Assembly: GCA_027459625.1 (NCBI GenBank) | Contig: DAIDHP010000042.1 | Span: 1-35,059 of the forward strand | DNA: 35,059 nt | Direction of reading: 5' to 3' | Source of the DNA: Chthonomonadales bacterium | GTDB taxonomy: Bacteria; Armatimonadota; Chthonomonadetes; Chthonomonadales; CAJBBX01 | In this document: in pieces, positions 20,114 to 35,059 of the stretch | Numbering within the stretch: the first letter of the stretch is position 1 | How the letters are laid out: the number at the start of each line of letters is the position of its first letter | Position numbers and translations under genes: made by a program | The notes under the pieces: generated by a model | The model's input: the letters and a program-made list of their open reading frames with translations, nothing else | Databases searched by the model: none | What the model was told of the DNA's origin: nothing

Positions 20114-20143
20114 GAAACAGGAACTGAAGAACGATTCCCCAAA

Positions 20144-20167
20144 GTATTATATAACATGTTGTTAACT
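20144..20167 (+). promoter_or_regulatory. Conserved palindromic site before exporter copy 2
   Basis: Bases 20144-20167 read GTATTATATAAC, then ATGTTGTTAACT. The core AACATGTT is a perfect palindrome within TAAC-AT-GTT-G-TTA. The same 24 bases recur before copy 3 (21806-21829) with only the two central bases changed, while the flanks differ. TATTAT/TATAAC may be a -10 box overlapped by an operator. It lies 23 bases before the GTG start. Confidence 0.55.
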
Positions 20168-20189
20168 AAATGGGTGGGGAGCCTGTTCG

Positions 20190-21778
20190 GTGTCTATATC
20201 CTCCTTTATCGGGAAGAGTAAATCATCTACGGACTACACAGGTGTCATTCGATGGTTTATTCTTGTCGCAGTCATGCTGGGCAATATACTTCAAACTCTG
20301 GACTACAGCATGGTCAATGTGGCAATACCCAATATGATGGGCAATCTCGGAGCCACAATTGACGAAATTAACTGGGTATCCACCGGTTATATGATGGCGA
20401 ACGTGATTGTGCTCCCGCTTACAGGATGGCTCTCAGCCGTATTCGGCAGGAAGCGATATCTTACATACTCCATTTTGCTTTTCATCATCGCTTCCATTTG
20501 CTCCGGCATGTCTCAGTCGTTAAATGAATTAATTATATTTCGAATCATCCAAGGTGCCGGGGGGGCTGCGTTGATTTCCACAGCTCAAGCTACGCTTGTT
20601 GAGGTTTTCCCGCTCGATCAACTAGGGGTTGCGCAAGGTTTTACGGTTTTGGGGTGGCGATGTCTCCCACTTTAGGGCCCATCCTTGGAGGATGGATCAC
20701 TGATACGTACTCGTGGAGATGGATATTCTTCGTGAATGTTCCCAGAGGCTTCCTTGCTGCTATGATGGTTTGGGTGTTCATACAGGATTCCGCATATCAA
20801 ACAAAAGGATTTGGGAGAGTGGATTTTACCGGCATCGCCCTGCTGGCAATCGGTTTTGGATGCATGCAAACCATGCTGGAGAATGGGGAGCGTGATGACT
20901 GGTTACAATCGGATTTCATTGTCACGTTAGCTGTTATATCCGCTATCTCATTGTTGATTTTCATCTATTGGGAACTCCATACGGAATCTCCAGCAGTAAA
21001 TTTGCGCATTCTGAAAAACCGAAATTTTGCGGCTGGCACCATTTTTACCGTTGTTTACGGTTTCGGTATGTATGGTGGAACGTTTATAATTCCGCTATTC
21101 CTGCAAAACATTCGACAATATACTGCTGAACAAACCGGTGCGGTTTTCATTTTGGGCGGACTGACGGCGATGGTGGGGATGCCGTTGGTTGGGAGGCTTA
21201 TCAATCACATACCTACGCGATTGTTGATTTTCATCGGGACTTGGGGATTTATCATTTATTTGGACATGCTTCATTTTCTTACAAACGTGACTAGTTCCGA
21301 GCATTTTTTCTGGTTAGTCGGCTTTCGCGGAATTTCCATGGGGTTTATATTCATCCCGCTTACTTTCATAACCTTGACCGGGTTAAAGGGTAAGGATTTG
21401 GCGAATGGATCGGGGTTGTACAATCTCATGCGACAAGTGGGAGGCAGCATAGGCATCGCATGGCTTTCTACGATGGTGGATAATCGTATCAGCTACCATC
21501 GGAGTCATCTGGTGAACTATGCAAATTCCTATAATCCAGCGTTCAGATTGAAGATGATTAGATTGATCGGGCTTTTCGAATCAAAAGGAGCCTCTTACCT
21601 TATGGCGCGAATGCAAGCGTTATCCATGGTGGATATATCCATACAAACGCAAGCTTCCGTCATGGCTTTCGGTGACACGCTGCTTTTTGTCGCACGCATC
21701 TTTTTCTTCTCTCTTCCACTATTATTACTTTTCCGACAAGGCCATCCCGGTCGAATGTCCCAGACTTCGGTTGATTGA
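20190..21778 (+). pseudogene. DHA2-family MFS exporter, copy 2, with one-base frameshift
   Basis: Paralogue of copies 1 and 3 across its whole length, but the frame breaks at GGGG (20651-20654). The first part, from GTG 20190 (after GGGGAG), reads to QLGVAQGFTVLG, then shifts into WRCLPL and a stop at 20673-20675. Adding one G restores VAMSPTLGPILGGWITDTYSW and the rest of a normal 14-TM protein ending at 21778, about 529 aa. In the sister copies the same place reads QGVYAIGVITAPTIGPTLGG and QGIYSIGVVVAPTIGPTVGG. Both halves keep clean conserved motifs and no other stops, so the change is either very recent, a homopolymer sequencing error, or a slippage-tolerant gene. If real, it leaves about 161 residues of a dead transporter. 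Confidence 0.88.
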
Positions 21779-21805
21779 AACGGGAACCGCATGGAGAAGC
21801 ATGAG

Positions 21806-21829
21806 GTATTATATAACCGGTTGTTAACT
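21806..21829 (+). promoter_or_regulatory. Conserved palindromic site before exporter copy 3
   Basis: Second copy of the 24-base sequence found at 20144. Here the central palindrome is AACCGGTT instead of AACATGTT. The paired change (AT to CG) keeps the dyad, as expected for a bound symmetric site or a base-paired element. It sits 20 bases before the TTG start of copy 3 and just upstream of its Shine-Dalgarno. Confidence 0.55.
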
Positions 21830-21849
21830 GATTCAAAAGGAGTTCATAG

Positions 21850-23445
21850 TTGCCTACTTCCTCAGCGGAGCAGACACACGAAGAATATAGCGATTATACA
21901 GGCATAATTCGTTGGGTTATCCTGATTGCGGTGATGTTGGGCACCATTTTGGAGGTGCTTGACGTGAGTATTGTAAATGTGGCTATCCCTGATATGATGG
22001 GCAATCTGGGAGCCACCATTGATGAAATCGGCTGGGTCTCCACGGGTTATATCATCTCCAACGTAATCGTCTTACCGCTCACCGGTTGGCTCTCTACCCA
22101 TTTCGGCAGAAAAAGATATCTTGCGGGCTCTATTATTCTTTTCACCTTAGCCTCATTCATGTGCGGCATTTCACACTCGCTGAATGAACTCATTTTTTTT
22201 CGAATTATCCAAGGAGCCGGCGGAGCTGCTCTCATCTCCACCGCCCAAGCCACTCTTATCGAGGTCTTTCCTCCGCAACAGCTAGGCGTTGTCCAGGGAA
22301 TATACAGTATCGGTGTGGTGGTCGCACCCACGATAGGTCCGACAGTTGGAGGGTGGATCACGGATAATTACTCCTGGCCGTGGATATTCTTTGTCAATAT
22401 CCCCATTGGCATCATGGCGGCGACGCTTGTCATTCTGTTCCTAAAGGATTCCAGATTTCAGAGGCGAGGAAGCGCCAAAGTGGATTTCCCGGGGATATTT
22501 TTCCTCGCAGTGGGGCTTGGTTGCATGCAGACGGTGCTGGAAAAGGGGGAGAGGGATGATTGGTTTCAATCCGATTTCATTGTGCGACTTACCGTCATCT
22601 CCGTAATCGCTCTGATCATCTTCATTTATTGGGAATTGAAAACCACCGATCCGGCGGTGAATTTACGTATTCTGAAAAATCGCAGCTTTATGGCGGGAAC
22701 TCTTTTCGCGAGTGTTCTGGGGTTTGGTCTTTACGGGGTTATCTTTATTCTGCCCATCTTTCTGCAGGACGTACGCAATTACACGGCGGAGCAGACTGGA
22801 TTAATGTTCCTTCCGGGAGGTCTTGCCACCATGTTTGTGGCGCCGATCATTGGCAGGTTGGTAAGCAAGATATCACCGCGAATCCTAGTCTTCATCGGAG
22901 CGGTGACTTTTGCATTCTCCATGTTTATGATCTACACTCTCTCGCCGAACACCGGTCCGGAACAAATTTTCGTCCCTCTTATCATTCGGGGTGCGGCGAT
23001 GGGATTCATCTTCATTCCTCTTACCTTGGCGGCTCTAACCGGGCTTCACGGCAAGGACCTGGCATATGGAACAGGTTTATTCAATCTGATGCGGCAATTG
23101 GGGGGTAGCATTGGGATCGCTTTCCTTTCCACCTATGTGGACAATCGGATGAATTTCCATCGTTCTTATCTCGTTCAGGATATCAACGTTTATAATCCCG
23201 CCTACCAAATACGCCTCGCGAATTTGGAGCATGCATTCCTCGCCAAAGGCGCAACGCCATATATCGCAGTGCGGCAGGCGTATGGGGTGTTGGATGGCAT
23301 CGTCCAACAGCAATCCGCCATCATGGCTTATAGTGACGCTCTTCTTATTATCGCCATCTCCTTTGTCGTAACACTTCCATTGTTACTGCTTTTCAAGAAA
23401 GGGGTTCCGGAGCATCTGCAAAGGGGAGGGGGAGGAATGCATTAA
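21850..23445 (+). CDS. DHA2-family (EmrB-type) MFS exporter, copy 3
   Basis: A 531-aa, 14-TM drug:H+ antiporter family member, closely similar to copy 1: MLGTILEVLDVSIVNVAIPD, GWVSTGYIISNVIVLPLTGW, FRIIQGAGGAALISTAQATL, APTIGPTVGGWITDNYSW, TGLMFLPGGLATM and LMRQLGGSIGIAFLSTYVDN. The start is TTG 21850, chosen because AGGAG (21838-21842) precedes it by seven bases and no ATG in frame comes before the first helix. The C-terminal tail ends in a Gly-rich GGGGMH. Three copies in a row imply repeated local duplication, with divergence perhaps towards different substrates. Confidence 0.93.
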   Translation: MPTSSAEQTHEEYSDYTGIIRWVILIAVMLGTILEVLDVSIVNVAIPDMMGNLGATIDEIGWVSTGYIISNVIVLPLTGWLSTHFGRKRYLAGSIILFTLASFMCGISHSLNELIFFRIIQGAGGAALISTAQATLIEVFPPQQLGVVQGIYSIGVVVAPTIGPTVGGWITDNYSWPWIFFVNIPIGIMAATLVILFLKDSRFQRRGSAKVDFPGIFFLAVGLGCMQTVLEKGERDDWFQSDFIVRLTVISVIALIIFIYWELKTTDPAVNLRILKNRSFMAGTLFASVLGFGLYGVIFILPIFLQDVRNYTAEQTGLMFLPGGLATMFVAPIIGRLVSKISPRILVFIGAVTFAFSMFMIYTLSPNTGPEQIFVPLIIRGAAMGFIFIPLTLAALTGLHGKDLAYGTGLFNLMRQLGGSIGIAFLSTYVDNRMNFHRSYLVQDINVYNPAYQIRLANLEHAFLAKGATPYIAVRQAYGVLDGIVQQQSAIMAYSDALLIIAISFVVTLPLLLLFKKGVPEHLQRGGGGMH

Positions 23446-23520
23446 CATAGAGCTGGAGGACGTTTTTATGTGTGTTTGAACATTTCACAGATCGCTTGTT
23501 AAGGGTTGATCCAATAACAC

Positions 23521-23594
23521 GGAACGGAAGTTCACCCCCTCGGAAGAGATGAAATCCTCTATCTCATCTGCGCGGAAATGAACTTTCGCGTTCC
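23521..23594. repeat. 74-base imperfect hairpin
   Basis: GGAACG plus GAAGTTCA (23521-23534) pairs with TGAACTTTC plus GCGTTCC (23579-23594), leaving a small bulge. The enclosed part has a weaker AGATGA/TCATCT pairing. TTTGTAAT follows on the plus strand. It could be the terminator of the exporter block or a small mobile hairpin. The remaining sequence from 23446 to 23715 shows no gene. Confidence 0.45.
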
Positions 23595-23715
23595 TTTGTA
23601 ATACCTATTTTTCATGTATTGCCCGCGCTCGCGAATTGCACGAATAGGCGCCATCCCGCGGTACGGATTGATTCTCGTCATTCATGCGCCCGTCGGTCGG
23701 CGAAAATGATAATCT

Positions 23716-24936
23716 ATGAAGCGTCTGCCGCCTCCCGCAATATTCGCCTTGAAAACGATCACCTCCCTACGCCATTCCTCACTTCCTCTTCCCAGTGGCT
23801 TCGATCAGGGCGCAGAGATTGCAATGATCGGACCCCACGTAAATCGTTCCGTTTTTGCCTATCACGGCGCCGGAAAGCGAACGATCACTATTTGTTTCAT
23901 ACGCTCAACTCAATTTGCCGGTGGCTCCGTCAAAGGCGCGGAATTCCCCAATGAGATCGTGTTCACCTCCGGAGCGACGGAATTGGTCAATCTGGCGATA
24001 AAGGGGGTTGCGGAGGCGAATGGGGACCGGGGCGATCACATTGTGACGGCTCTGTCGGAGCACAAGGCGGCTCTGAACGCGTGCCGTCATCTGGAGCGCA
24101 AGGGGCTTCGTGTCACCTGGCTGTCGCCCGACGGCGACGGACTGATCGACCCCGAGGCGGTGAGGGAGTCCATAACCGACAGGACCGTTCTCGTCTCGAT
24201 CATGGCGGCGAACAACGAGACCGGCGTTCTGCAGGACGTGGCGTCCATGGGGCGGATATGCCGCGAGCGCGGGGTTCCTTTTCACACGGACGCGACTCAG
24301 GCCGTCGGCAAGCTCCCCTTCAACGCAAGGGACGCCAACGCCGACATGATCTCGCTCTCCGCCCACAAGATATACGGTCCGAAGGGGGTCGGTGCGCTGT
24401 ACGTCAACCGGAAGGCGAGGGGGAGGATCGCGGCGCAGGCGGACGGGGGAGGGCACGAGGGCGGGCTTCGATCCGGGACCGTGAACACGCCGGGCGCGGT
24501 GGGAATGGCCACCGCGCTGAGATTATGCGCCGACGAGATGGCGACCGAATCGGCTCGAATAGGAAGACTGCGCGACAGGCTGCAAACGGGTCTGATGGCC
24601 TCCATCGAACATGTCAGGCTGAACGGTCACCCGACTCGAAGGGTACCCGGAACCCTGAACCTCTCCTTCGCCTTCGCGGAGAGCGAAAGTCTGCTTCTCC
24701 TGACGCCGGAGATAGCGCTGTCGCCGGGCTCCGCCTGCACGTCGGCGTCGCGCGAGCCGTCTCACGTCCTGAAGTCAATGGGAATCGATGACGACCTGGC
24801 GCACTCGGCGGTGCGCTTCAGCGTCGGAAGGTTCAACACGGAGGAGGAGATTGACCTTGTGATCGCGAGGGTTACGGAGAGCGTGAACCGCCTTCGGTCC
24901 ATAAGCCCATTGTTCGCAACGTCCAGGAGAAAATGA
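23716..24936 (+). pseudogene. 5'-truncated cysteine desulfurase (NifS/IscS family) remnant
   Basis: From about base 23937 on, the protein is a clean IscS/NifS-type PLP enzyme: NEIVFTSGATELVNLAIKGV, the PLP-ring His in LSEHKAAL, SIMAANNETGVLQDV, FHTDATQAVGKLP and the Schiff-base Lys in SLSAHKIYGPKGVGALYV. The active-site Cys sits in LSPGSACTSAS, and SAVRFSVGRFNTEEEID ends the family part. The first 70 or so residues of the open frame (MKRLPPPAIFALKT onward) do not resemble the family: the YLDYSATTP-type N-terminus and its following helices are absent in all three frames I checked. Base composition jumps to GC-rich with strong third-position G/C from about 24000, unlike the exporters. This looks like a truncated, probably transferred, gene without its normal start. 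An intact novel N-terminal fusion is less likely. Confidence 0.75.
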
Positions 24937-25479
24937 GGGAAAATCATCCCCCCTCTCCGTCTCGCCGCAGTCGGAGGGTTGCCGTTGTCGTGAACGTACA
25001 CGTGGAAACAGCCGACTGTGATTGCAAGCCTGCGCTCCGCCGTTGATTCAAAGCTTTTGTTCACGTTGGCAGCCTCTGAAGCATTCATAAGGATCGATTC
25101 CCGTCATGTACTCGCACGACTGTCAGAACGTTTATATCCGATGAGCGAACGTCCCTCTTCTCAAACTAATCATCCGAGACATCAACATCTCTTTTGCATC
25201 CGGTATATGCATTAAACGCCAATTATTGATATGAAGGAATGATCCTATTAGGGCCATGTTATTAATGACCGTTAAGCGTGGGGTAACTATTTCTCACCAA
25301 ATTAAAACCGAGCATTAGAATGATATGGAATACCACCTATGAGAAAGAATATGTAAGGATCCACCCGACGCCCCAATCAAGAGACACCAACGGGATGCGG
25401 ACTGCGGTAATACAGGAAAGAATACGTATCAACCACCAATGATATCATCGTGATAGATCAAGGGAGGGCGAAAACCAGA
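24937..25479. other. Non-coding stretch between the nifS remnant and the Rhs region
   Basis: No supported gene or RNA. Open frames here are short and lack start signals or recognisable composition. Bases 25091-25128 resemble 23665-23702 (about two thirds identical, 15 of the first 17), a possible direct repeat either side of the nifS piece. Composition shifts from GC-rich to AT-rich rightwards. Confidence 0.4.
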
Positions 25480-26718
25480 TTAACTTCCTTTACATTGAAT
25501 GTCTGAATGATTCTCAAAAGATTTATCCATTCTTTTCCATCCAAGTATCATAATAAGAACTAATGGCACAAAAGCCAGTAGGATTGACTTTGGCCAATTA
25601 TATAAATCACTTGTAAACACATAAACAAAAAATTCGCATCCGAAAAATACTATATACGGAAACTTTCTGGGAAACAACATCCAGATAGGGACTAACAGAA
25701 TGATAAGCCAAGGTGACATTAAAACATTGAGTCTAAATAGATTATTTAATATAATCATTAAAAAAAGCATGATTGCCAAAACAATCGAAATCCAAGTTGA
25801 TATTCTTCGGCGAAGCACGTCATTAATACGATATATTTTAAATATCGTATTTTGAATTATAATTATAATTATCACAAAAATCAAAATTACTATTGGATGT
25901 ATCCATTGATTTATGGGGCATTTTATATTAGAATTAATCAAGAAATACGCTCCAGCCACCCAACTGAAAAATATCCAGTACGAAATCCTATAATTAAATT
26001 TCTCATCCGAGTTAAATACCATTAGAAAGATTGCCAGATCAATAAGCACAAAGGAAATATCGTATGGAACCTCGCTCCAATCAGGACCATATATTTTGCC
26101 ATTATATGTATCACCTAAATAGTAAGGTATCGGTCCAGAGGATATTGTCGTGAAGATAAATAATTTCTGTGTTCCATATGGACTTACAGAATTAACTATA
26201 TAAGAAGGAAAAAATATAAAATAAGAAATAATCATGAAAAAGCATGAAATTAGAATTATTTGATGTACATATGAAATCCTTCTTTTCTCCAATACGACTA
26301 AACACAATAAGTTAGAAACGGCAAGACATGGGAGAGTGAACCAATATCCTACAATATCCCGTAAATTCAATTCATATCCATGATCAAACTTTGCCCATGG
26401 ATGCAGATAAATAATAAAATATAGTATCTGCAAGCCTATCCCAGTGATTAGAATGGTCAATTGATAATATCGTAACCTATCACAATTGCGAAAAATCATA
26501 TAAATTGAATATAGCGCAATGAAGATGCATGCTATTTCGAGTTTTAACACATAACCGTTTGACGACGTATTCTTGATAATTTGAATATATTCCCCAAAAT
26601 TCTTCATAGTATTGAATGAAAAATATTCGAACCTTACTTCCATGTATAAATGTAAAAGATATAACAGAGCCCCAGTCAAAACGCACCATTCCGTTATTTT
26701 TCTAGCCATTGTTGTCAT
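25480..26718 (-). CDS. Polytopic membrane protein, candidate immunity or accessory protein to the Rhs tip
   Basis: A 412-aa protein with roughly ten to twelve hydrophobic helices. Examples are CVLTGALLYLLHLYM, FIALYSIYMIF, LTILITGIGLQILYFIIYL, IIFFPSY-type segments, an unusually Ile-rich VILIFVIIIIIIQNTIF, and LLVPIWMLFP. No family is recognised. The gene is strikingly AT-rich compared with the amino acid block. Two starts are possible: ATG 26718 (MTTMARK) or ATG 26709 (MARK), the latter better spaced from GGA. It follows the Rhs1 tip gene by 135 bases on the same strand, the position where immunity or companion genes usually lie. That role is an inference from position only. Confidence 0.6.
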   Translation of the reverse strand: MTTMARKITEWCVLTGALLYLLHLYMEVRFEYFSFNTMKNFGEYIQIIKNTSSNGYVLKLEIACIFIALYSIYMIFRNCDRLRYYQLTILITGIGLQILYFIIYLHPWAKFDHGYELNLRDIVGYWFTLPCLAVSNLLCLVVLEKRRISYVHQIILISCFFMIISYFIFFPSYIVNSVSPYGTQKLFIFTTISSGPIPYYLGDTYNGKIYGPDWSEVPYDISFVLIDLAIFLMVFNSDEKFNYRISYWIFFSWVAGAYFLINSNIKCPINQWIHPIVILIFVIIIIIIQNTIFKIYRINDVLRRRISTWISIVLAIMLFLMIILNNLFRLNVLMSPWLIILLVPIWMLFPRKFPYIVFFGCEFFVYVFTSDLYNWPKSILLAFVPLVLIMILGWKRMDKSFENHSDIQCKGS

Positions 26719-26853
26719 CCGTTCATTTATAATAAACCAAGTGCCATATGAAAATATAATCCGTTATCGCTATGACCGTTAGTTTCATCACCACGCGAAA
26801 AACGTCGATACTGCCGAAATACCTTGCATTCTGAAAAAGATACATCGTTATCC

Positions 26854-28185
26854 TCAATAACATTGTTTGCCTAATTTACAAGGAAAAGTGTGCTTATAGT
26901 AAATAGTTTTCGTAGGGCAGTCAGGTCCACCTAATGGACTCCAGCATTCACAGTTCCTATTGTGGTATTGGAATCCAGATCCCAGTACAATAGGCTCATC
27001 GCAGGGTAAGCATGTGCTATACGAAACAAGTTTTTTGGATGTGACGCAATCATCCAGAGCCTCCGACAAAGGATTGAATTTCTTCGAGATTTGATTGGTT
27101 TGCAACGTAAGGATTCCGAACGAGAAACAAAAATTCTGAATATTATTTGTCGCTCCCATATTATAAAGATCATACCCAACCCCATATGCATATCCCTTTG
27201 CATCGCACCATTTTCCTTTGACAGCACTTAAGAAACAGTAAGGTGCAGCTAAGATATCATTAAACGAAAAATTGAGAGCCCTTCCTACTAGTCCGTACAT
27301 AATATTGCCAACCTGATGTATCGGAAGACACTTGCCGCAAAGCGTGACCGTATGATGCCCGCAATTATGGGAATATTGTGGAATTTTTGGACAAAGATAA
27401 GTTGACTTATTACCCATTCTCTTGTAACCTTGGTTCATGCCAGCCCAGCCTAAATAATTCAAAATATAGTTGTCCAAGGAACAGGCTAATAAATTCATTC
27501 CTATGGTACATAGAGGAAGCAAATCAGATGTGTTTTTAATTTTGTTGTGAAACATCCTAGCCCACTTTATTTGTGTTCCGATTTCCTTTATAATCCATTT
27601 ATCCAAATTTGGACCGCAGTACATGCAAGAACTCAGTCCGGATGGATCCATGCGCTTTATCGACTGATTCCCCACGTAATGATAAGCACCCTTGTCCGCG
27701 CTTCGATATCCGATTGGATCCCGGCTCATCCACCTCCCCTGATCAACCCGCAAGACCCTTCGTCTAACGTACAGCCTCTCCGCCTCGTCCCGCCAGTACC
27801 CCACCTGGCCGCCGAACCTCAGCGAATTGATCGTGGATCCGGAAACCGCCATCTCCTCCCCGAACGCCTCGTAGAGATAGTCATCGGTGACATTACCATT
27901 TATCGACGCGAGAATGCGCGTGTTCGCCTGCTGGTCGAAGCCGTAGAAGCTTGACGTGGCTCCCCTTCGCTCCGAGGCAAGCCCTCCCCACACGCCCGGG
28001 AAGTCGGTGTAGTGCGCGTGGGTGACGAGGCCGGAGTCGGTTTCAATAAGCACGTTCTCGCCGTCGCGAACATAATACACGGTTCCCGATGAATTGACTT
28101 TTTCCTCCCGCATCCCGTCCGCCGAGTAGGAGTAGGTCTCGACCCCGCCCGGGGAGGAGACGCCCGTCAGTCTGTTCTTGCAATC
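26854..28185 (-). CDS. Orphan Rhs core end with Cys-rich tip (Rhs1), 5'-truncated
   Basis: The frame is open from 28185, just inside a TGA at 28186-28188, and reads DCKNRLTGVSSPGGVETYSY, then from ATG 28113 MREEKVNSSGTVYYVRDG. The core part (first 160 residues from that ATG) ends in GRWMSRDPIGY and MDPSGL, the standard Rhs repeat-associated core. The remaining 259 residues are the tip: about 19 Cys, an NCGHH pair, and a central VGNIMYGLVGRALNFSF with GYAYGVGYDLYN. That pattern resembles, from memory, the polymorphic toxin type 44 family. The core is GC-rich and the tip AT-rich, the classic Rhs pattern. The YD-repeat shell, N-terminal delivery part and start site are missing, so it is probably a silent, displaced tip cassette. 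The membrane protein gene downstream is the candidate immunity partner. Confidence 0.75.
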   Translation of the reverse strand, partial: DCKNRLTGVSSPGGVETYSYSADGMREEKVNSSGTVYYVRDGENVLIETDSGLVTHAHYTDFPGVWGGLASERRGATSSFYGFDQQANTRILASINGNVTDDYLYEAFGEEMAVSGSTINSLRFGGQVGYWRDEAERLYVRRRVLRVDQGRWMSRDPIGYRSADKGAYHYVGNQSIKRMDPSGLSSCMYCGPNLDKWIIKEIGTQIKWARMFHNKIKNTSDLLPLCTIGMNLLACSLDNYILNYLGWAGMNQGYKRMGNKSTYLCPKIPQYSHNCGHHTVTLCGKCLPIHQVGNIMYGLVGRALNFSFNDILAAPYCFLSAVKGKWCDAKGYAYGVGYDLYNMGATNNIQNFCFSFGILTLQTNQISKKFNPLSEALDDCVTSKKLVSYSTCLPCDEPIVLGSGFQYHNRNCECWSPLGGPDCPTKTIYYKHTFPCKLGKQCY

Positions 28186-28308
28186 TCAATTTCAAGCGGC
28201 TACCTCTTGTGCCTTTAAATTCGGATGTCCTAACCTCTTTTCAAAGCTATCGGTTATTTTAAAACATTTTCAACCGCGAAGGATTTTCCCATTTTGTCTA
28301 CATCGGTA

Positions 28309-28926
28309 TTACCATCCTAGTTTATTCCATGCCTCGCAGCGAACGAACTTAACATGTCCATCAAGGAAAGCGAAATTCAGATCGCCTGGATGTCGTTTTT
28401 CAGGAGTTATAATATCCTTGTTGCCATACGCATCGGGACCGGTGGCGTCACATTCGAACAGCATAACGATATCTTGCCAGTTATCTCTCTTGTAAAGCAA
28501 CCCCTTCCCCAAGGAGATATTCAAGGCGTACGTATATGGCGATGAGGATGCAGGACAACGTATGACGCCAATTTTCTTTTCGGAACCAAGAAAAGCTCGC
28601 CCTTCCGTATACCATTGATTGGCGGGTGGAAAAGTATCATCCCAGTCATCTGCGTAGTCAAGAAGCGCACGACTCAAAATCCTCATGTTCTCATTGCATG
28701 TCACATTCTGGCGAACGACGAATGCGGAGAGGAAAGGTGCGTAAAATACGCTGCAAAGTCCCACGAAAGCAATAAGGAACAGAAATATTTTCACCCATTT
28801 GACGACCTTACGAAATATGGAAGATCCAATTCGTTTGTATGTCACTTGTAATAGCACAGCGGGAACAAACAACGTAATCAACCATATCATATCTCTATCA
28901 ATTCGTAAGGCTATCAAATAATTCAT
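28309..28926 (-). CDS. H-X9-DG / DUF1559-like prepilin-type membrane protein
   Basis: A 205-aa protein with two N-terminal hydrophobic segments (IWLITLFVPAVLLQV and FLFLIAFVGLCSVFYAPF), then an extracytoplasmic domain. The domain has NMRILSRALLDYADDWDDTFPPANQW and ends RHPGDLNFAFLDGHVKFV, an exact H-x9-DG motif. Such domains are abundant in Armatimonadota, Planctomycetes and relatives, usually on type II pseudopilins that begin with a prepilin cleavage site. Here the usual FTLIELLVV signal is absent and two TM segments replace it. ATG 28926 follows GGGAGGGA with an eight-base gap, a strong start. It lies just upstream of the truncated Rhs1 and may have come in with an insertion that cut it off. 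Confidence 0.8.
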   Translation of the reverse strand: MNYLIALRIDRDMIWLITLFVPAVLLQVTYKRIGSSIFRKVVKWVKIFLFLIAFVGLCSVFYAPFLSAFVVRQNVTCNENMRILSRALLDYADDWDDTFPPANQWYTEGRAFLGSEKKIGVIRCPASSSPYTYALNISLGKGLLYKRDNWQDIVMLFECDATGPDAYGNKDIITPEKRHPGDLNFAFLDGHVKFVRCEAWNKLGW

Positions 28927-29591
28927 CGTTAATCCCTCCCGATCTTTGTGTTGCCGCCATCACATGAAATGCAATTTCAGCTTCAGCTAAACCATACTCT
29001 ATTCGCATGGTTACGTTAATAACTGTTGAAAGATACGTTGGGCATCATCATAACTTTTCTGTTTCGCTACCTGTGTTTGCGGAACATTGCAATGAAAAAC
29101 AGCAATGCTGGAGAAGAAAGTGAACGTGGCTTACTCACAGTGCAATTTCTCCTCTCATCTCTTGTACTACGTTCGATTTTTAAAGGTAGGTTTTTAATCG
29201 CTCTTATTGATATTGCTCCTGCCATACAACATCTCAAACTCATCCACTGGCGTTATAAATACCATCACTTCACATGAGCGTCTTACCTTTTGAATCCGCT
29301 ACACTTTTACACTACATCAGATAAATAATACAGGCATACTTTCCATGTCAATTCAACACTCACACATTCGCTCACCTCGGCATTGACCATAAAAGACGTG
29401 TAATGTGACCGCTTTATCGCTCGAATTGCTCCGTGCAAAGATTACATGCAACCTTCCTATTTTAATCGTTGCCAATGCCTTGTCGATAAGATCAGTAACC
29501 GAAATTGAGAGGACAGCATGATGACATTATTCTTCTCATATTTGCAGATAACTTGCTAATTGAATCATTTTTCTTTTCAGACATATATTGA
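28927..29591. other. Non-coding region downstream of the Rhs2 tip
   Basis: No supported gene on either strand. A plus-strand frame at 29026-29277 has no Shine-Dalgarno and an unconvincing composition. An immunity gene would be expected here for Rhs2, since it lies downstream on the minus strand, but none is visible. Confidence 0.45.
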
Positions 29592-30700
29592 CTACATACT
29601 TGGATATTGCCAAACAGGGAAATATGGCGGTGGCGGATATTTGAAATAGCCATGACGTTGGCAACTAAGAAATGCGTTATCACGCCACTTCTTTAATAGT
29701 GCCTTTCCCGGCCCCGTAATGGAGCAACAAACGTTAATACCACATTGTATGCAACATAAACTTATTTGGAGAAATCCTGTCCCTCCTCCTGAAGTATAAC
29801 ATTGTTTATAGTATGGATTATATGTAGCACACTCACCGAGATGATAGTTCACAATTGTACATAGAGATATTTGTTCAATTATATTTCTTGAATCATCACA
29901 TAACTCCGAATCAAGATTGTCATAATAATCCTCCCAAAAAGTATAGATTGCACACACATTCTTATAGCAACTATATTTTGGATATTGGGGGCTTACCCCT
30001 TTCATTGTGGATGGACTATTACTACCACAAGATATTTGTAACTTATCATAGTGGGATATACCACCATTCTTCTGCAAGCCGAGTGGATCAATATAGAACG
30101 TTGGACGATTTTCAACATATTGATATGGATGAATCGCTTGATTGATCTGGTCCCCGCTCATCCACCTCCCCAAATCCGTCCTCAAATGCCTCGCCCTCAC
30201 GTACAGCCTCTCCGCCACGTCCCTCCAGTACCCGACCTGACCGCCGAACCGCAGCGGGTTCACCGTATTTCCTGAAACAGCAAGCTCCTCCCCGAACGCC
30301 TTGTAGAGATAGTCGTCCGTGACCGCCCCGGCGGGGGAGACCAGAATGCGCGTGTTGGCTTGCTGGTCGAACCCGTAAAAGCTGGAAACTCCGCCCCTTC
30401 TCTCGGATGCCAGCCCGCCCCACATCCCCGGGAAGTCGGTGTAGTGAGCCTGGGATATCAAATTCGCATCCGTTTCTATCAGCACGTTGTCGCCGTCCCT
30501 CACGTAATAAACGGTTCCGGAGGAGTTGACCTTTTCCTCTCTCATCCCGTCGGCCGAGTAGGAGAATGTCTCCATTCAGGACGGGGAGGTGACGCCAACA
30601 AGCCGGTTTTCGTAGTCCCATGAATATGTGGTCAGCGCGCCTCCTGCGTTCTCGGTCAGAATGTTGCCGTTCGCGTCGTAGGTCGATGTGGTCGGCACCG
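29592..30700 (-). pseudogene. Orphan Rhs core end with short Cys-rich tip (Rhs2), in-frame stop
   Basis: Translated from ATG 30575 it gives 327 aa: METFSYSADGMREEKVNSSG, a core nearly identical to Rhs1 (YYVRDGDNVLIETD, GFDQQANTRIL, LRFGGQVGYWRD), an altered junction GRWMSGDQINQ and DPLGL at about residues 163-167. A 160-residue tip follows with 13 Cys and no recognised family. Upstream of the ATG the Rhs frame continues (TYDANGNILTEN, TTYSWDYENRLVGVTSPS), but a TGA at 30576-30578 interrupts it where Rhs1 has a Gly codon. Homology fades near 30700, so the bulk of the Rhs gene is gone. The near-identical core with an unrelated tip is the signature of tip exchange. The ATG just after the stop has no good Shine-Dalgarno, so expression is doubtful. 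Confidence 0.75.
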
Positions 30701-30844
30701 GAGCAAAGCTCCACCCCAGGTATGGGGGGAGGGCTTTAAAGACAAGCTTCCATTCATCCTCGTCGTGTATAGAAATCCGCCTAGGTCATAGCCGCTCGAC
30801 CGATTGACAATCGGATTGCACACGAATTCTCATAGACCCGTTAT

Positions 30845-31441
30845 TTATAATTTGGGACCTATAAAAAGAGAAATAAGCCACGGAGTCGAAGGCTTATATT
30901 TTTTATCGTTGGGTGTAAGTCTATACGCATCTATAGAAATAGTCAAATGTTTTCCTAAAATAACGTAACCCGAGTATTCCCTGTGCACTGTCTTTCCCCT
31001 GTAAGGAGATAGACTTATTATTCTTTCTAGTTTATTTGTAAAATCAGCAAATTTATAATGTGTTTCAGGCCCTAAGCATGCTTTAATGTATGGTAAATTG
31101 GTTCCAAGTCGGTTCCAGAATACGCCATCGTAAAACTCCATTGCGAGTCTACCATCTTGAGAGGTTGAAAATTGTACGAAATATTCTCATGGCAAGGATT
31201 TTATCTCCGACAATTCACGAATGACTCCTCCTTCAGGAATTGGAATTGGAACCGGAAGCGATTTGCCATTGATTGCATGTATTACCTGAAGTTTATAGAT
31301 AGCCCCTTTAATCTTGATTGAGCTAGCATTTTGTGTTCTTGTATGTGCGATATCCATGACAATTACAAAAACGTAGATTATAGCAAATACCGATATAGTC
31401 AATCTCACATGTGATGATATTATAGTTCCAATGTTTTTCAT
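30845..31441 (-). pseudogene. Small TM-anchored protein interrupted by an in-frame TGA
   Basis: ATG 31441, preceded by AAAGGA with eight-base spacing, starts MKNIGTIISSHVRLTISVFAI, an N-terminal membrane anchor (about residues 14-32). A polar domain follows to KSLP and TGA (31187-31189). The same frame then continues without a break, EYFVQFSTSQDGRLAMEFYD, to 30845; it includes LGKHLTISIDAY and LISLFIGPKL. Read through, the product is 198 aa and looks like one exported domain on an anchor; stopped, it is 84 aa. No family is recognised. It lies between the Rhs2 remnant and the secreted protein gene. It may be a decayed immunity or accessory gene of the Rhs region. Confidence 0.55.
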
Positions 31442-31578
31442 TTGAATGATCCTTTCTAAAACGACCTATTGTCGAAAGATAATTGGTTCTTCGCTGTTTC
31501 CTGTGGGTGATGAATGGATGAGTAAGCGGTGACATGGAATAAGACGTCGTTTATTATGGTTCCGCTCCATATTCCCAT

Positions 31579-31645
31579 CGGGATGAATCCCGAGGTACGA
31601 TATCCCAAATGGCTTGAAAGCCATCCGCCAACCCCGAAGGGGTTG
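31579..31645. repeat. Cluster of three short hairpins, REP-like element
   Basis: Three perfect stem-loops follow one another: CGGGAT-GA-ATCCCG (31579-31592), ATGGCT-TGAA-AGCCAT (31609-31624) and CAACCCC-GAA-GGGGTTG (31629-31645). The CCCCGAAGGGG hairpin next to a GGGATGAATCCC hairpin is a layout I associate with dispersed intergenic repeats in Planctomycetes-like and Armatimonadota-like genomes. The surrounding gap, 31442-31961, holds no supported gene; a minus-strand frame across it (31466-31777) only translates the hairpins. Confidence 0.55.
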
Positions 31646-31961
31646 AATATTAACAGTTCGGTTCGCCCGCAACACATCCTCCTTCAGGCTTTGCAAGCGT
31701 ATCGGCACACTCCATTGGACATCTTTATCGGGATGGAATGAGTTCAATGCAGAGATACCCGCCTGTCGTATAACCACACAAAACAGCGAGGAACCTAGTT
31801 TCTTCTAAAATGACGCTGGCGCAATAACCTCTTCGATCCCTGCTCGCTAAGTTTCTCGTCTTACTTCAATCCATTTCCTTTCATCATTTAACTCCCTGAT
31901 ATCTACACCAATTTGTACCGAGAGGCTGTTTCGCTTATGTTAACGCAGAGGAACAAATACT

Positions 31962-32678
31962 TTACCTCCAATGCTTGAACGTCAATGGCTCCAGACGTTT
32001 GACGTAGGGGCAGTGACGAACCAGCACGTATCGAAACCGCGCCTGTGACCACTTCCACACTTTGGCGGTCATTTCACTCAGTCCGATCTTGGCATTCGTC
32101 ATAGGGGGATACCAATTAAGTGTAATTATCTCCTCGTCGGAATAGGCCGGGTAGGCGTCCTTGTCCAAATCCACGAATTCCGGCATATACTGAAAACCGG
32201 TTCGCATGCTTCCTGCGTCAAACACGATCGAAAATTTGCCGCTGTATTGCCTCCCTATAATCACCCACTCAGTATTCGGTTGTGCTTCTCCGGAAGCTGT
32301 AATAAGCATGGCTCCCAATCGGGGGAGTTTTCCGTCAGCTGTGCTCTCGGCGGGTTCAATCCAAGGCATTATCCCGTTGACCCAAGTTTCAGGTCTGTTG
32401 AAACGATATAGAATTCGACCGGAAGTCCAACTCCTAAATTCCACGATATCTCCTTTCACAGGATTAGTTGAATACCATTCCACGTAGAATTCGGAATGTT
32501 CACCATTAGGGGGAAACCATTCAAAATAATGGTATTTCAAGGATGATATAGCAAATTTAGAGGGACCATGATGGAGGCCCTTATCGGGTGATTTGTGTCC
32601 ATGCGGGGCGCCAAGCGACAGCAGTGTCAATGCGCTGAAAACGATAACGAGGGACGCAACAGCATTCTTGATGAACAT
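31962..32678 (-). CDS. Secreted protein of unknown function, candidate immunity or companion of the HELGH-Rhs protein
   Basis: A 238-aa product with a signal peptide (KNAVASLVIVFSALTLLSLGA, cleavage near 23), hence periplasmic or extracellular. The mature part begins His-rich (HGHKSPDKGLHHG). It carries two copies of a Trp/Tyr-rich strand pattern (FEWFPPNGEHSEFYVEWY and ITLNWYPPMTNAK). Its C-terminal half has EFVDLDKDAYPAYSDEEII and KVWKWSQARFRYV, reminiscent of VCBS/FG-GAP-like 'DLDGDG' repeats. No named family. GGGAGG precedes ATG 32678. It starts 19 bases after the stop of the metallopeptidase-Rhs gene, so the two are translated as a pair. An exported immunity protein would suit a toxin acting outside the cytoplasm, but that is inference. 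Confidence 0.65.
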   Translation of the reverse strand: MFIKNAVASLVIVFSALTLLSLGAPHGHKSPDKGLHHGPSKFAISSLKYHYFEWFPPNGEHSEFYVEWYSTNPVKGDIVEFRSWTSGRILYRFNRPETWVNGIMPWIEPAESTADGKLPRLGAMLITASGEAQPNTEWVIIGRQYSGKFSIVFDAGSMRTGFQYMPEFVDLDKDAYPAYSDEEIITLNWYPPMTNAKIGLSEMTAKVWKWSQARFRYVLVRHCPYVKRLEPLTFKHWR

Positions 32679-32697
32679 TTCCCCCTCCCTTTCATAT

Positions 32698-34569
32698 TCA
32701 TTTAGCGTATCGCAGGCAATGATCGCATGTCTGTTCGTCTTTGTGCTTTTTCCAATCCGTGCTCAAACATTTTTCGCATTTCCTCATCTTTGAAATATCA
32801 TACTCTGGCGATCCATAGCGTTTCAATCCTATACATTGTAATCCGATATAGGCAGCCTTCGCCCCTTGGCACCAATCCTTGCCCTGAACCCCTTTTTGCT
32901 TATCACCTTTACAGCAAGCACCGCGATTGCATCCGCAATTGATCAACGTCTTTAGGAGTCCGGGTTGTCCACTCGGTAGGGTGCACATAAGTTGCCCTAT
33001 TCCTCCATGGTTATCTCCCCCGCAGCCTTGATCCATCATATCGCACTCAATATGAAAGACGCAAAGCATCATCTCTTTACTAACCTGATGTTGATTAGGA
33101 GCCGCCTTGCACCCACACCCATGCCCTTTGCAATTATACTTTCCCGTATTTTCCAGGCATGAATAAACATCCTTGCAACTATGTTTATGACTCGGGGGGG
33201 AAGGTTTTTTGTGAACGCGTGAGATCGGTGCTCTTCCTGACGGGCTAGCATATTTAACCGGATTGTCATACGCATACCTGTATGGCGATTCGGTGCCGGT
33301 TTGTTCCGCCAGGCGCTCCCTGCTCAGCCACAGTCCGATCCCGGGCATGTAGCTTCTTCCAAAGTGACGCTGTCGGTGTGAGCCGATCCGTCGGGGAATG
33401 GACGGTTGATCAAGCCTCATGACGGAGCGCCGTAATGCCGTGGGCTCCGTCCAACGATAGGAGGCGTCGAGAAACTGTATCTGTGCACTTCCGTTGGGAG
33501 CGCCGAATATTCGCCATCGCACATTCGCGCCGATATCGTGCTTCGCCATTGCCTTTCCAATCTCCAGCTTCTCTCGTACGGAACAGCCTGGAAAGAACTT
33601 GGGAAATTTATCCTGATAACATTCGGTCGGGATAACTTCCTCCAAATCCCTCGTTATATCGAATGAATCGCCGATTGCGCGGAATGATAAGATTGCGCAC
33701 TCATTTATGACTTCCTTTATCGAACCGCCGTCGTCAACCCCGTGTTGACTAACACTGTTTACGAATTCTTCGGCCAAGAGGCATATTTCAGGTATGCCTT
33801 GCTTCAACGTGGCAATAGCGACATTAAAATCCCGTAATGATGTTTCTGAAAGCCGATTTTGATCCAGAATCGCGGCGGCTATGATTGGAGCCAAACACGC
33901 CGCCTCTCGCTTTGAAGGGGGCTGATAACCGGCGTTTACCGCTTGAGCCATGGAATGGATCGTCTCAAATTGCTGGTCGTCGATGATCGTCATATCGAAT
34001 CCGCGCCCCGCAATAACATCGTTGACCTTCCGATCTAAAACAAACGATTGAATATACTGGAACTGGCGAACTCTGCTCGTATCGGACAGGTCGCGCATCA
34101 TACGGTAGTCTTCGCAATTTTCAATCAGATCAATCCACACATGCCCCAGTTCGTGTGCAAAGATGGTTTCATGAAGATGAACTGCGTCAAAGAAAAACAA
34201 TATCCTATTGGGGTCGGACCAGGCGTCCACGCTATGCCCGTCCGGATGGGATTGGTTAGGATGGAGATGCGGCATCGTATCGAGAGGGATAAGATGTTTG
34301 CTGGTGCTACGATCAACCTGGATGAAAAAGTCATTCAGTCGCGGTGACATATTTTGGGGAATAATAACCGGAAGAAGATCACGTGGGTCGTGGGAAATGA
34401 CATTTCCATAATCACGAGCCATGGATGAAAGAGTGGGTGCAAAAAAGTGACCGTATACGATCCATTCCATACCGTACTTGTTAATCATTTTTGACCCGAT
34501 CGATGGTAGTTTATTCTCCAAAGCGATTGTATTATATTTCTCTCGGATTGCGGATAGTTCTTTACACAT
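32698..34569 (-). CDS. HELGH metallopeptidase-like domain fused to an Rhs core end and a Cys-rich tail
   Basis: A 623-aa protein in three parts. Residues 1 to about 330 form an alpha-rich domain with HETIFAHELGHVWIDLIENC; H139-E140-x-x-H143 is a zincin motif, and Glu or Asp at 153-154 could be the third ligand. Residues about 340-395 form a linker with WRIFGAPNG. Residues about 400-445 are an Rhs core end: FGRSYMPGIGLWLSRERLAE, YRYAYDNPVKYASPSGR. Residues 460-623 are a tail with 19 Cys, closing with a CxxC-x13-CxxC zinc-ribbon-like pair (598/601 and 615/618). No signal peptide is evident. Start ATG 34569, GGGAGG upstream. Its core end differs from Rhs1 and Rhs2. The peptidase could be a processing domain or a second effector. 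The secreted protein gene lies 19 bases downstream. No known family with this whole architecture comes to mind. Confidence 0.7.
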   Translation of the reverse strand: MCKELSAIREKYNTIALENKLPSIGSKMINKYGMEWIVYGHFFAPTLSSMARDYGNVISHDPRDLLPVIIPQNMSPRLNDFFIQVDRSTSKHLIPLDTMPHLHPNQSHPDGHSVDAWSDPNRILFFFDAVHLHETIFAHELGHVWIDLIENCEDYRMMRDLSDTSRVRQFQYIQSFVLDRKVNDVIAGRGFDMTIIDDQQFETIHSMAQAVNAGYQPPSKREAACLAPIIAAAILDQNRLSETSLRDFNVAIATLKQGIPEICLLAEEFVNSVSQHGVDDGGSIKEVINECAILSFRAIGDSFDITRDLEEVIPTECYQDKFPKFFPGCSVREKLEIGKAMAKHDIGANVRWRIFGAPNGSAQIQFLDASYRWTEPTALRRSVMRLDQPSIPRRIGSHRQRHFGRSYMPGIGLWLSRERLAEQTGTESPYRYAYDNPVKYASPSGRAPISRVHKKPSPPSHKHSCKDVYSCLENTGKYNCKGHGCGCKAAPNQHQVSKEMMLCVFHIECDMMDQGCGGDNHGGIGQLMCTLPSGQPGLLKTLINCGCNRGACCKGDKQKGVQGKDWCQGAKAAYIGLQCIGLKRYGSPEYDISKMRKCEKCLSTDWKKHKDEQTCDHCLRYAK

Positions 34570-34928
34570 CCCTTTGATCCTCCCTTACAATGATTTCCAT
34601 TTACATAGACAGTTTCAGTACGGTTATTGCTCGTGATAGAGCTAATCGCTGCTGATTTTCGACATGCGAAGGAATATCCTTTCAGTTAGTTATTATGTAA
34701 CATTGTGCATCATGTCTCTCCGTATAAATTGTTGCGTATGAACACCAATCTGAAATCCAATACAATCGTGAGGATCCAATTATTCGGATGAATTGTTGGC
34801 TTTGATATTTCGTATCGCTGGTAAAAGCTTATCCATCCAATCCTCGGTTTACAAATCAAAGAGGGAATATACGCCTTGTGTAAGAAGATGTGCCTCGTTA
34901 AGGCGGATGCAATGGGTTTCAGAATCCG
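34570..34928. other. Intergenic region upstream of the HELGH-Rhs gene
   Basis: No gene supported. It should contain the minus-strand promoter for the HELGH-Rhs/secreted-protein pair; several AT-rich candidates exist (for example around 34685-34740), but none has a clear -35/-10 pair. Confidence 0.35.
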
Positions 34929-35059
34929 ATGGATGCCGAGAAGATGGAACTGGGGGAGAGCGAAATAGATGCAATCATAGACGTTTCCGAAGGGGACGGC
35001 AGGAAGGTGATGAACCTTCTGCAGGCAGCATCCATGCTGGGCAAAGTCACCGCCTCCAG
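34929..35059 (+). pseudogene. Fragment resembling an RFC small subunit (AAA+ clamp loader), cut by window end
   Basis: Translation from ATG 34929 gives MDAEKMELGESEIDAIIDVS, followed by EGDGRKVMNLLQAASMLGKV, still open at the edge. SEGD-x-RK-x-x-NLLQAA matches the lid helix region of archaeal and eukaryotic RFC small subunits, better than bacterial DnaX. Just upstream in frame FQNP (from 34917) fits the 'F-x-P-M' lead-in, but TAA at 34899-34901 ends the frame. The stretch between DAEKM and ELGES is shorter than in the family. No AAA+ ATPase core precedes it, so within the window it is a remnant. It may continue on the right. Confidence is limited by the 43 residues available. Confidence 0.4.

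What the first reader, a model, noticed from the sequence alone, without database searches (positions are those of the whole stretch)
25480..34569. Minus-strand array of displaced Rhs tips with paired downstream genes
Three Rhs core ends with unrelated C-terminal tips lie on one strand. Two share nearly identical cores (Rhs1, Rhs2) but differ completely after DPSGL/DPLGL. None has the large Rhs shell or a delivery domain. This looks like a reservoir of tip-plus-immunity cassettes left by repeated recombination at the conserved core, with some decay (in-frame stops, truncation at 28185 and about 30700). GC-rich cores and AT-rich tips add support.
Basis: partly seen in the sequence, partly recalled or inferred. 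Interest (0 to 1): 0.6.

Follow-up and report, generated by a model that had tools for sequence, protein, structure and literature searches.

The report
Shuffled toxin-tip cassettes in Armatimonadota bacteria
This stretch of DNA from a bacterium of the little-studied phylum Armatimonadota holds two spare end pieces of Rhs proteins and one complete protein built on a different, apparently undescribed enzyme-like body, whose cysteine-rich tips seem to be swapped like cassettes together with a neighbouring gene.

Summary
The window is a whole contig of an Armatimonadota (Chthonomonadales) genome. Rhs1 and Rhs2 are real orphan Rhs ends: 0.45-0.55 kb of GC-rich core, cut at different 5' points, then unrelated AT-rich, cysteine-rich tips. 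Their cores match a long Rhs gene on contig C60 and six orphan copies on C30; against a sister species, core-tip-partner blocks have moved, vanished or swapped at cores. This is the displaced-tip array known from Enterobacteria, here with 74-85% (not near-identical) cores and no full-length Rhs beside them.

Rhs3 is not a displaced tip. It is an intact 623-aa gene, 90% conserved in the sister species: a 390-aa N-domain with invariant HExxH, a ~40-aa reduced Rhs end, a cysteine-rich tip, then a partner gene. This backbone occurs in 28 of 291 Armatimonadota genomes; some of its tips are homologous to Rhs tips elsewhere in the phylum, others match Ntox16, phospholipase A2 and phosphodiester glycosidase models. 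Close tip homologs usually keep a homologous downstream gene (9 of 11 pairs; 14 of 5211 unrelated pairs), distant ones rarely (1 of 20). Toxin and immunity function, and delivery, are inferred, not shown.

The parts
32698..34569 (-). Intact 623-aa gene ('Rhs3', HExxH-backbone polymorphic protein)
   Evidence: Single open frame; 90% identical full-length copy in sister genome G001:C46
33400..34569 (-). Constant N-domain (aa 1-390); HExxH (HELGH) at aa 139-143, about 34141-34155
   Evidence: 28 of 291 phylum genomes; A138-H139-E140 and H143 invariant in 28 of 28 rows; AF2 pLDDT 87.5
33220..33360 (-). Reduced Rhs end motif (YMPGIGLWLSR...YDNPVKYASPSGR)
   Evidence: TIGR03696 E 6e-5, below its cut-off; same motif in all 28 distinct backbone genes whose C-terminal side is readable
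32698..33219 (-). Cys-rich tip 3 (19 Cys in about 177 aa)
31962..32678 (-). Downstream partner gene of tip 3 (238 aa, hydrophobic N-terminus), candidate immunity
   Evidence: Starts 19 nt after the tip's stop; 64% homolog after the same tip in G001
31480..31804 (.). MITE-like dispersed repeat with imperfect terminal inverted repeats
   Evidence: inverted repeat I1; 23 places in the genome
31187..31441 (-). 84-aa ORF with N-terminal hydrophobic segment, possible leftover partner gene
   Evidence: no relative in the fetched loci outside this contig
30845..31141 (-). 98-aa ORF, possible leftover
   Evidence: no relative in the fetched loci outside this contig
30145..30696 (-). Rhs2 core fragment, 5'-truncated
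   Evidence: 84% nt identity to the long C60 gene
29592..30575 (-). Rhs2 orphan ORF (ATG directly after a TGA); tip 2 = 29592-30074, 8% Cys
   Evidence: weak tip relative in G001:C143
28309..28926 (-). 205-aa gene with H-X9-DG/DUF1559-type end; doubtful partner of Rhs2
   Evidence: TIGR04294 22.8 bits over cut-off 19; PF07596 1e-4, just below its cut-off
27713..28188 (-). Rhs1 core fragment, 5'-truncated
   Evidence: 82% nt identity to the long C60 gene
26854..28113 (-). Rhs1 orphan ORF; tip 1 = 26854-27633, 7% Cys
   Evidence: tip relative (37%) in G025:C506, also an orphan
25480..26718 (-). 412-aa multi-pass membrane protein downstream of tip 1, possible immunity
   Evidence: 9 hydrophobic segments; no family match; not found beside the tip-1 relative

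Best explanation
The locus is a cassette region of polymorphic effectors in a Chthonomonadales bacterium. Rhs1 and Rhs2 are displaced, probably silent tip modules of a genome-wide Rhs subfamily whose long parent lies on another contig. They keep 0.45-0.55 kb of core, which serves as the homology block by which core-tip-partner units are exchanged. Rhs3 is an intact gene of a second backbone: an HExxH, probably zinc-peptidase-like, constant domain that ends in a minimal Rhs end onto which tips from an overlapping pool are grafted. The tips are predicted to be disulfide-stabilised effectors acting in the cell envelope or outside the cell, and the gene after the tip to be its immunity protein. 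Shown: anatomy, family membership of the cores, block differences between sister species with junctions in cores, tip homology across backbones, tip-partner co-conservation among close homologs, invariant HExxH. Inferred: toxicity, immunity, zinc binding, disulfides, silence of the orphans, delivery route.
For: Parent and siblings: long C60 gene with 14 RHS repeats and six C30 orphan cores, with nearly every 5' cut different. Exchange: C30 10002-15650 and 26432-27161 are collinear (88%) with G001:C70, where the 10.8 kb between them is absent; the block C30 21411-23739 lies at another place in G001, on the ends of contigs C131 and C32; at C30_21870/C131_315 flank, truncation junction and core are shared but the tips are unrelated. 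Pairing: 9 of 11 homologous tip pairs at 40% identity or more (outside the genome's other Rhs families) have homologous downstream ORFs, against 14 of 5211 non-homologous pairs. Overlapping pool: backbone tip L185 and Rhs tip G022_C141_929, E 3e-29; L170 and G022_C141_4524, E 1e-10. Enzyme-like tips on this backbone: Ntox16 41.5 bits over cut-off 25; PLA2 3e-4 and NAGPA 4e-4, both below their cut-offs. Cys: Rhs tips fetched by core similarity median 7.0% (n 61), HExxH backbone 8.7% (n 25), this genome's other Rhs tips 0.9% (n 17). Orphan tip C30_23751/C32_1152: dN/dS 0.32 (0.19-0.54).
Against: No tip in the window matches a toxin family over its cut-off (Rhs1 only Ntox44 at E 0.046), and none of five C30 orphan ORFs scanned matches any Pfam family. 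Below 40% tip identity only 1 of 20 pairs keeps a homologous neighbour, and none of the 5 cross-backbone pairs does. Tip 1's relative has an ankyrin-type neighbour instead (label by eye). The HExxH domain has no significant Foldseek match and only Z 4.7 at best with VIA-align. The excess of hydrophobic N-termini downstream is modest (31 of 66 against 27% of 347 background ORFs). No VipB or phage-type sheath was found in the genome. The long ORFs of related Rhs proteins in G004 and G027 show no clear signal peptide by eye, so an extracytoplasmic site for the tips is unproven. The sister genome is a draft MAG; assembly errors at repeats are possible.
Confidence: 0.68

Rival explanations
1. Neutral decay: Rhs1 and Rhs2 are plain debris of old Rhs genes, with no reservoir role; only Rhs3 is functional.
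For: Stops upstream of both frames; orphan C30_15193 has two TAG; the G001 core at C102 is cut by a stop and has no tip; a MITE-like repeat sits in the locus and is enriched near Rhs loci.
Against: Tip and partner frames stay open; an orphan tip shared with G001 shows dN/dS 0.32 (0.19-0.54); core dN/dS is 0.09-0.20 over 21 pairs, though that may mostly reflect time before displacement; blocks differ as core-to-core units.
Confidence: 0.2
2. Rhs1 and Rhs2 are stand-alone genes started at the conserved internal Met (MREEK), not displaced remnants.
For: Six of the eight orphan copies on C30 and C42 have an in-frame ATG at MREEK and open frames of 283-419 aa.
Against: The same Met is part of the long C60 protein; 5' cut points differ in nearly every copy, and I saw no shared upstream element in the 60 bases printed there.
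Confidence: 0.12
3. The variable tips are adhesion or recognition tips rather than toxins; the partners are chaperones or anchors.
For: Cys-rich tips without toxin-family matches in the window; partners often have hydrophobic N-termini.
Against: Tips on the same backbone match Ntox16 (over cut-off) and, below cut-off, PLA2, NAGPA and M35-type models; the layout is that of polymorphic toxins (PMC3482391).
Confidence: 0.2

Closest known systems
Displaced Rhs C-terminal tips (Jackson et al. 2009, PMC2935791; passages read)
   Same: Core fragments of variable length with unrelated tips in strings, GC-rich core and AT-rich tip, sharing of tips between loci
   Different: Cores 74-85% identical, not near-identical; no full-length Rhs next to them on the contig; another phylum; Cys-rich tips
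Orphan cdiA-CT/cdiI modules (Poole et al. 2011, PMC3150448; passages read)
   Same: Arrays of start-less tip fragments with partner genes; homology running from one conserved block to the next
   Different: Rhs core instead of VENN; no CDI two-partner system was looked for
PVC-metallopeptidase toxins (Zhang et al. 2012, PMC3482391; section 13 read)
   Same: Constant N-terminal HExxH domain plus variable C-terminal toxins
   Different: No HExxHxxQ signature, no Pfam match, an Rhs end before the tip, no phage-type sheath found in the genome
Low-Cys Rhs proteins of the same genome (C43, C39, C5, C9)
   Same: Shared pre-tip plus swapped ends, downstream partner genes
   Different: Low Cys, HNH-like stretches (label by eye), Sec-type signal peptide on the C5 gene (by eye)

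Membership tests
Displaced Rhs tip array | Fragments of one core subfamily, variable 5' cut, unrelated tips | tested here: met
Displaced Rhs tip array | Fragments lie downstream of an intact rhs gene at the same locus | tested here: inconclusive
   None on contig C42, which ends at 35059; the matching long gene is on C60
Displaced Rhs tip array | Cores near-identical to the local intact gene | tested here: not met
   74-85% identity to the other copies and to C60
Displaced Rhs tip array | Exchange at the core between related strains | tested here: met
   (between sister species; draft MAG caveat)
Polymorphic toxin system (HExxH backbone) | Constant N-domain with variable C-terminal domains | tested here: met
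Polymorphic toxin system (HExxH backbone) | C-terminal domains of known toxin families | tested here: met
   Ntox16 over cut-off in L188; PLA2 and NAGPA below cut-off. Not met for the window's own tip 3
Polymorphic toxin system (HExxH backbone) | Cognate immunity gene downstream | tested here: inconclusive
   Co-conservation in 9 of 11 close pairs, 1 of 20 distant pairs; neutralisation not tested
Polymorphic toxin system | Growth inhibition by the tip | not testable with these tools
   needs an experiment
PVC/eCIS metallopeptidase toxin | HExxHxxQ-E signature | tested here: not met
   HExxH is followed by x-W in most of 28 rows; no HExxHxxQ
PVC/eCIS metallopeptidase toxin | Contractile sheath in the genome | tested here: not met
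   PF04984 and PF05943: 0 matches in a 96.6% complete genome
Zinc metallopeptidase (gluzincin-type) | Fold match | tested here: inconclusive
   M61, M48, M1 and M4 peptidases among the VIA rows at Z 3.3-4.7, with unrelated folds between

The most novel reading that the evidence does not exclude
Armatimonadota carry an undescribed class of polymorphic effectors: an HExxH backbone without Rhs shell, without evident signal peptide (window copy) and without a detected contractile apparatus, which plugs into the Rhs tip pool through a roughly 40-residue Rhs end and carries disulfide-type toxins by an unknown export route.
Probability: 0.45. Interest if true: 0.7.

Novelty: new variant of a known kind. 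Interest (0 to 1): 0.52.

Why it matters
It would show that the Rhs C-terminal cassette is not tied to the Rhs shell: a short end motif seems enough to let an unrelated backbone draw on similar tips. That makes it testable what the minimal adapter for tip exchange is, and it gives a family of cysteine-rich effector candidates with partners in a little-studied phylum.

Tried and rejected
Ntox44 for tip 1 (E 0.046): not upheld; its relative gives no Pfam match. AF2 model of tip 1 from two sequences: mean pLDDT 40, not used. PDB sequence search with the N-domain gave only viral capsid rows at E 0.67 or worse, taken as chance; none for the PLA2-like tip. Foldseek gave nothing at E 0.001. Viral contigs: none of 138 pattern stretches encodes the N-domain. 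Rfam: 0 matches in 23000-35059. A first downstream-gene comparison was spoilt because downstream stretches contained the next Rhs core; it was redone with stretches cut at the next core and Rhs-like frames left out, and only that is used. Rows dropped before counts: one search kept only core hits reaching the core's end; tips under 40 or 60 aa, hits with inner stops and homologous pairs aligned over fewer than 60 aa were left out. Papers: among the rows listed by searches 56, 60 and 77 none holds Armatimonadetes, Armatimonadota, Fimbriimonas or Chthonomonas together with the toxin terms; this covers only those rows of the held open library. Papers seen only in listings are not relied on.

Full report
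Setting. The window is the whole of contig C42 (35059 bases) of a 4.55 Mb, 114-contig genome, 96.6% complete. Relatives found by core sequence carry the names MAS4.bin79, WY3.bin81 and uncultured Chthonomonas sp..

Rhs1 and Rhs2. Both are 5'-truncated ends of one Rhs subfamily. The Rhs1 core (163 aa) has 32 matches in the genome, itself included. The closest are five on C30, one on C60 and Rhs2 (72-80% identity) and a broken C30 copy at 71%; the rest are 31-40% families. C60:18931-21698 is an open frame of 921 aa running off the contig end, with 14 RHS repeats and its own Cys-rich tip. Blast against it places the 5' cut of orphan cores at many different points, and the 3' end of nucleotide homology mostly at about the RDPIG codons. 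Pairwise dN/dS of seven core segments (21 pairs) is 0.09-0.20; much of that may predate displacement. The frames directly upstream of both ORFs hold stops, so translation would need an internal ATG.

Sister-species test of recombination. Against G001: C30 10002-15650 and 26432-27161 match C70 6379-779 and 732-2 at 88%, so the 10.8 kb between them, with five tip modules, is an insertion or deletion. C30 22195-23739 matches C32 1-1541 at 90%, and C30 21411-22180 matches C131 775-5 at 85%; the two contig ends abut on C30, so one core-tip-partner-core block sits elsewhere in G001, next to different neighbours. At C30_21870/C131_315 the upstream flank, the truncation point and the core are shared but the tips are unrelated. 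The end of the aminotransferase gene next to the window's array (24676-24960) is found in G001:C102 next to a tipless, stop-broken core fragment. These are drafts; misjoins cannot be excluded, though cores about 80% alike share few long exact words.

Rhs3. The third item is a different thing. The whole 623-aa protein is 90% identical in G001:C46. Residues 1-390 occur in 28 of 291 phylum genomes. In 28 aligned copies A138, H139, E140, H143, S175 and D179 are among the invariant columns. Pfam, NCBIfam and PDB sequences give nothing for the N-domain. The AF2 model is good (pLDDT 87.5, pTM 0.86). No Foldseek hit reaches E 0.001; VIA rows at Z 3.3-4.7 include M61, M48, M1 and M4 peptidases but also unrelated folds such as TetR regulators, so a zinc-peptidase fold is plausible, not shown. 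One search lists 35 open frames (33 after two repeats of the same gene); 5 are broken or cut before the end. All 28 others carry the reduced Rhs end: 25 by pattern, 3 read by eye. Variable, mostly Cys-rich tips follow (exceptions such as L179, 2 Cys in 93 aa). Identity between the two sister copies is 95-98% along the N-domain and then patchy, 51-99% in 150-column windows, from the linker through tip and partner. dS is 0.08 in the N-domain, 0.27 in the tip and 0.67 in the partner, as expected if the 3' part was exchanged.

Overlapping tip pool, two backbones. I compared 112 tips: 83 Rhs, 25 HExxH-backbone and 4 others. Cross-backbone pairs with composition-adjusted blastp include L185 with G022_C141_929 (3e-29), L170 with G022_C141_4524 (1e-10) and L184 with G022_C141_5833 (3e-9). 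Weaker pairs may owe something to cysteine richness. None of the pairs at E 1e-5 or better involves the window's own tips.

What the tips may do. On the HExxH backbone: Ntox16 over cut-off (L188), PLA2 3e-4 (L172), NAGPA 4e-4 (L181), M35 0.039 (L190), the last three below their cut-offs; of the 10 proteins scanned 5 had no match and one (L164) only implausible weak ones. Tip 1 and its relative in G025:C506 share 37% identity and 12 invariant cysteines. Cys content is 7.0% median for 61 Rhs tips fetched by core similarity, 8.7% for 25 backbone tips, and 0.9% for 17 tips of the genome's other Rhs families; background ORFs average 2.0% (n 347). These counts are not independent draws.

Partners. 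With downstream stretches cut at the next core, 103 tips give 5253 pairs. Of 42 homologous tip pairs, 17 have homologous downstream ORFs; of 5211 others, 14 do. Leaving out pairs within the C43/C39/C5/C9 family: 10 of 31, made of 9 of 11 at tip identity 40% or more and 1 of 20 below. Two of the nine are the G000/G001 sister pairs and one lies within a single contig. None of five cross-backbone pairs shares a neighbour. So tip and neighbour travel together over short distances and are re-paired, or diverge beyond recognition, over long ones. Candidate partners have a hydrophobic N-terminus in 31 of 66 cases (47%) against 27% of background ORFs (Fisher p 0.001; starts chosen crudely).

Delivery. 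The genome shows no phage-type sheath and no VipB. The genome's other Rhs family has a Sec-type signal by eye (C5 gene, C15 5' end), whereas long Rhs relatives in G004 and G027, and Rhs3 itself, show none by eye. The route is open.

Verdict. Rhs1 and Rhs2 work like the displaced-tip arrays of PMC2935791 but differ in core identity and in the missing local parent. Rhs3 is a second backbone carrying the same kind of tips, like the PVC-metallopeptidase toxins of PMC3482391 in layout but not in signature. I found it in none of the papers listed by searches.

Noticed in passing
window 31480-31804: A MITE-like repeat of about 315 bp present at 23 places in the genome; 8 of 23 lie within 2.5 kb of an Rhs core (2.5% of the genome; binomial p 5e-8).
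   Followed up: partly
window 34943-35059 (+): Fragment at the contig end reads like a clamp-loader (archaeal RFC-type) AAA protein; resemblance recalled, not searched.
   Followed up: no
window 18521-23445: Three tandem DHA2-type MFS transporter genes, the middle one split into two frames (label recalled).
   Followed up: no
G000:C43, C39, C5, C9 (L054, L055, L057, L059): Another Rhs family with low-Cys tips sharing a pre-tip and swapped ends, some with an AHHxxPWxF stretch; several contig ends fall inside Rhs genes.
   Followed up: partly
G001:C46:22180-22425 (L158): Displaced fragment of the reduced Rhs end downstream of the Rhs3 partner: tip displacement may also occur in the HExxH backbone.
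   Followed up: partly
L181, L183 (Armatimonadota): HExxH-backbone tips with an NAGPA-like GGGSTQ/GGGSSQ end.
   Followed up: no
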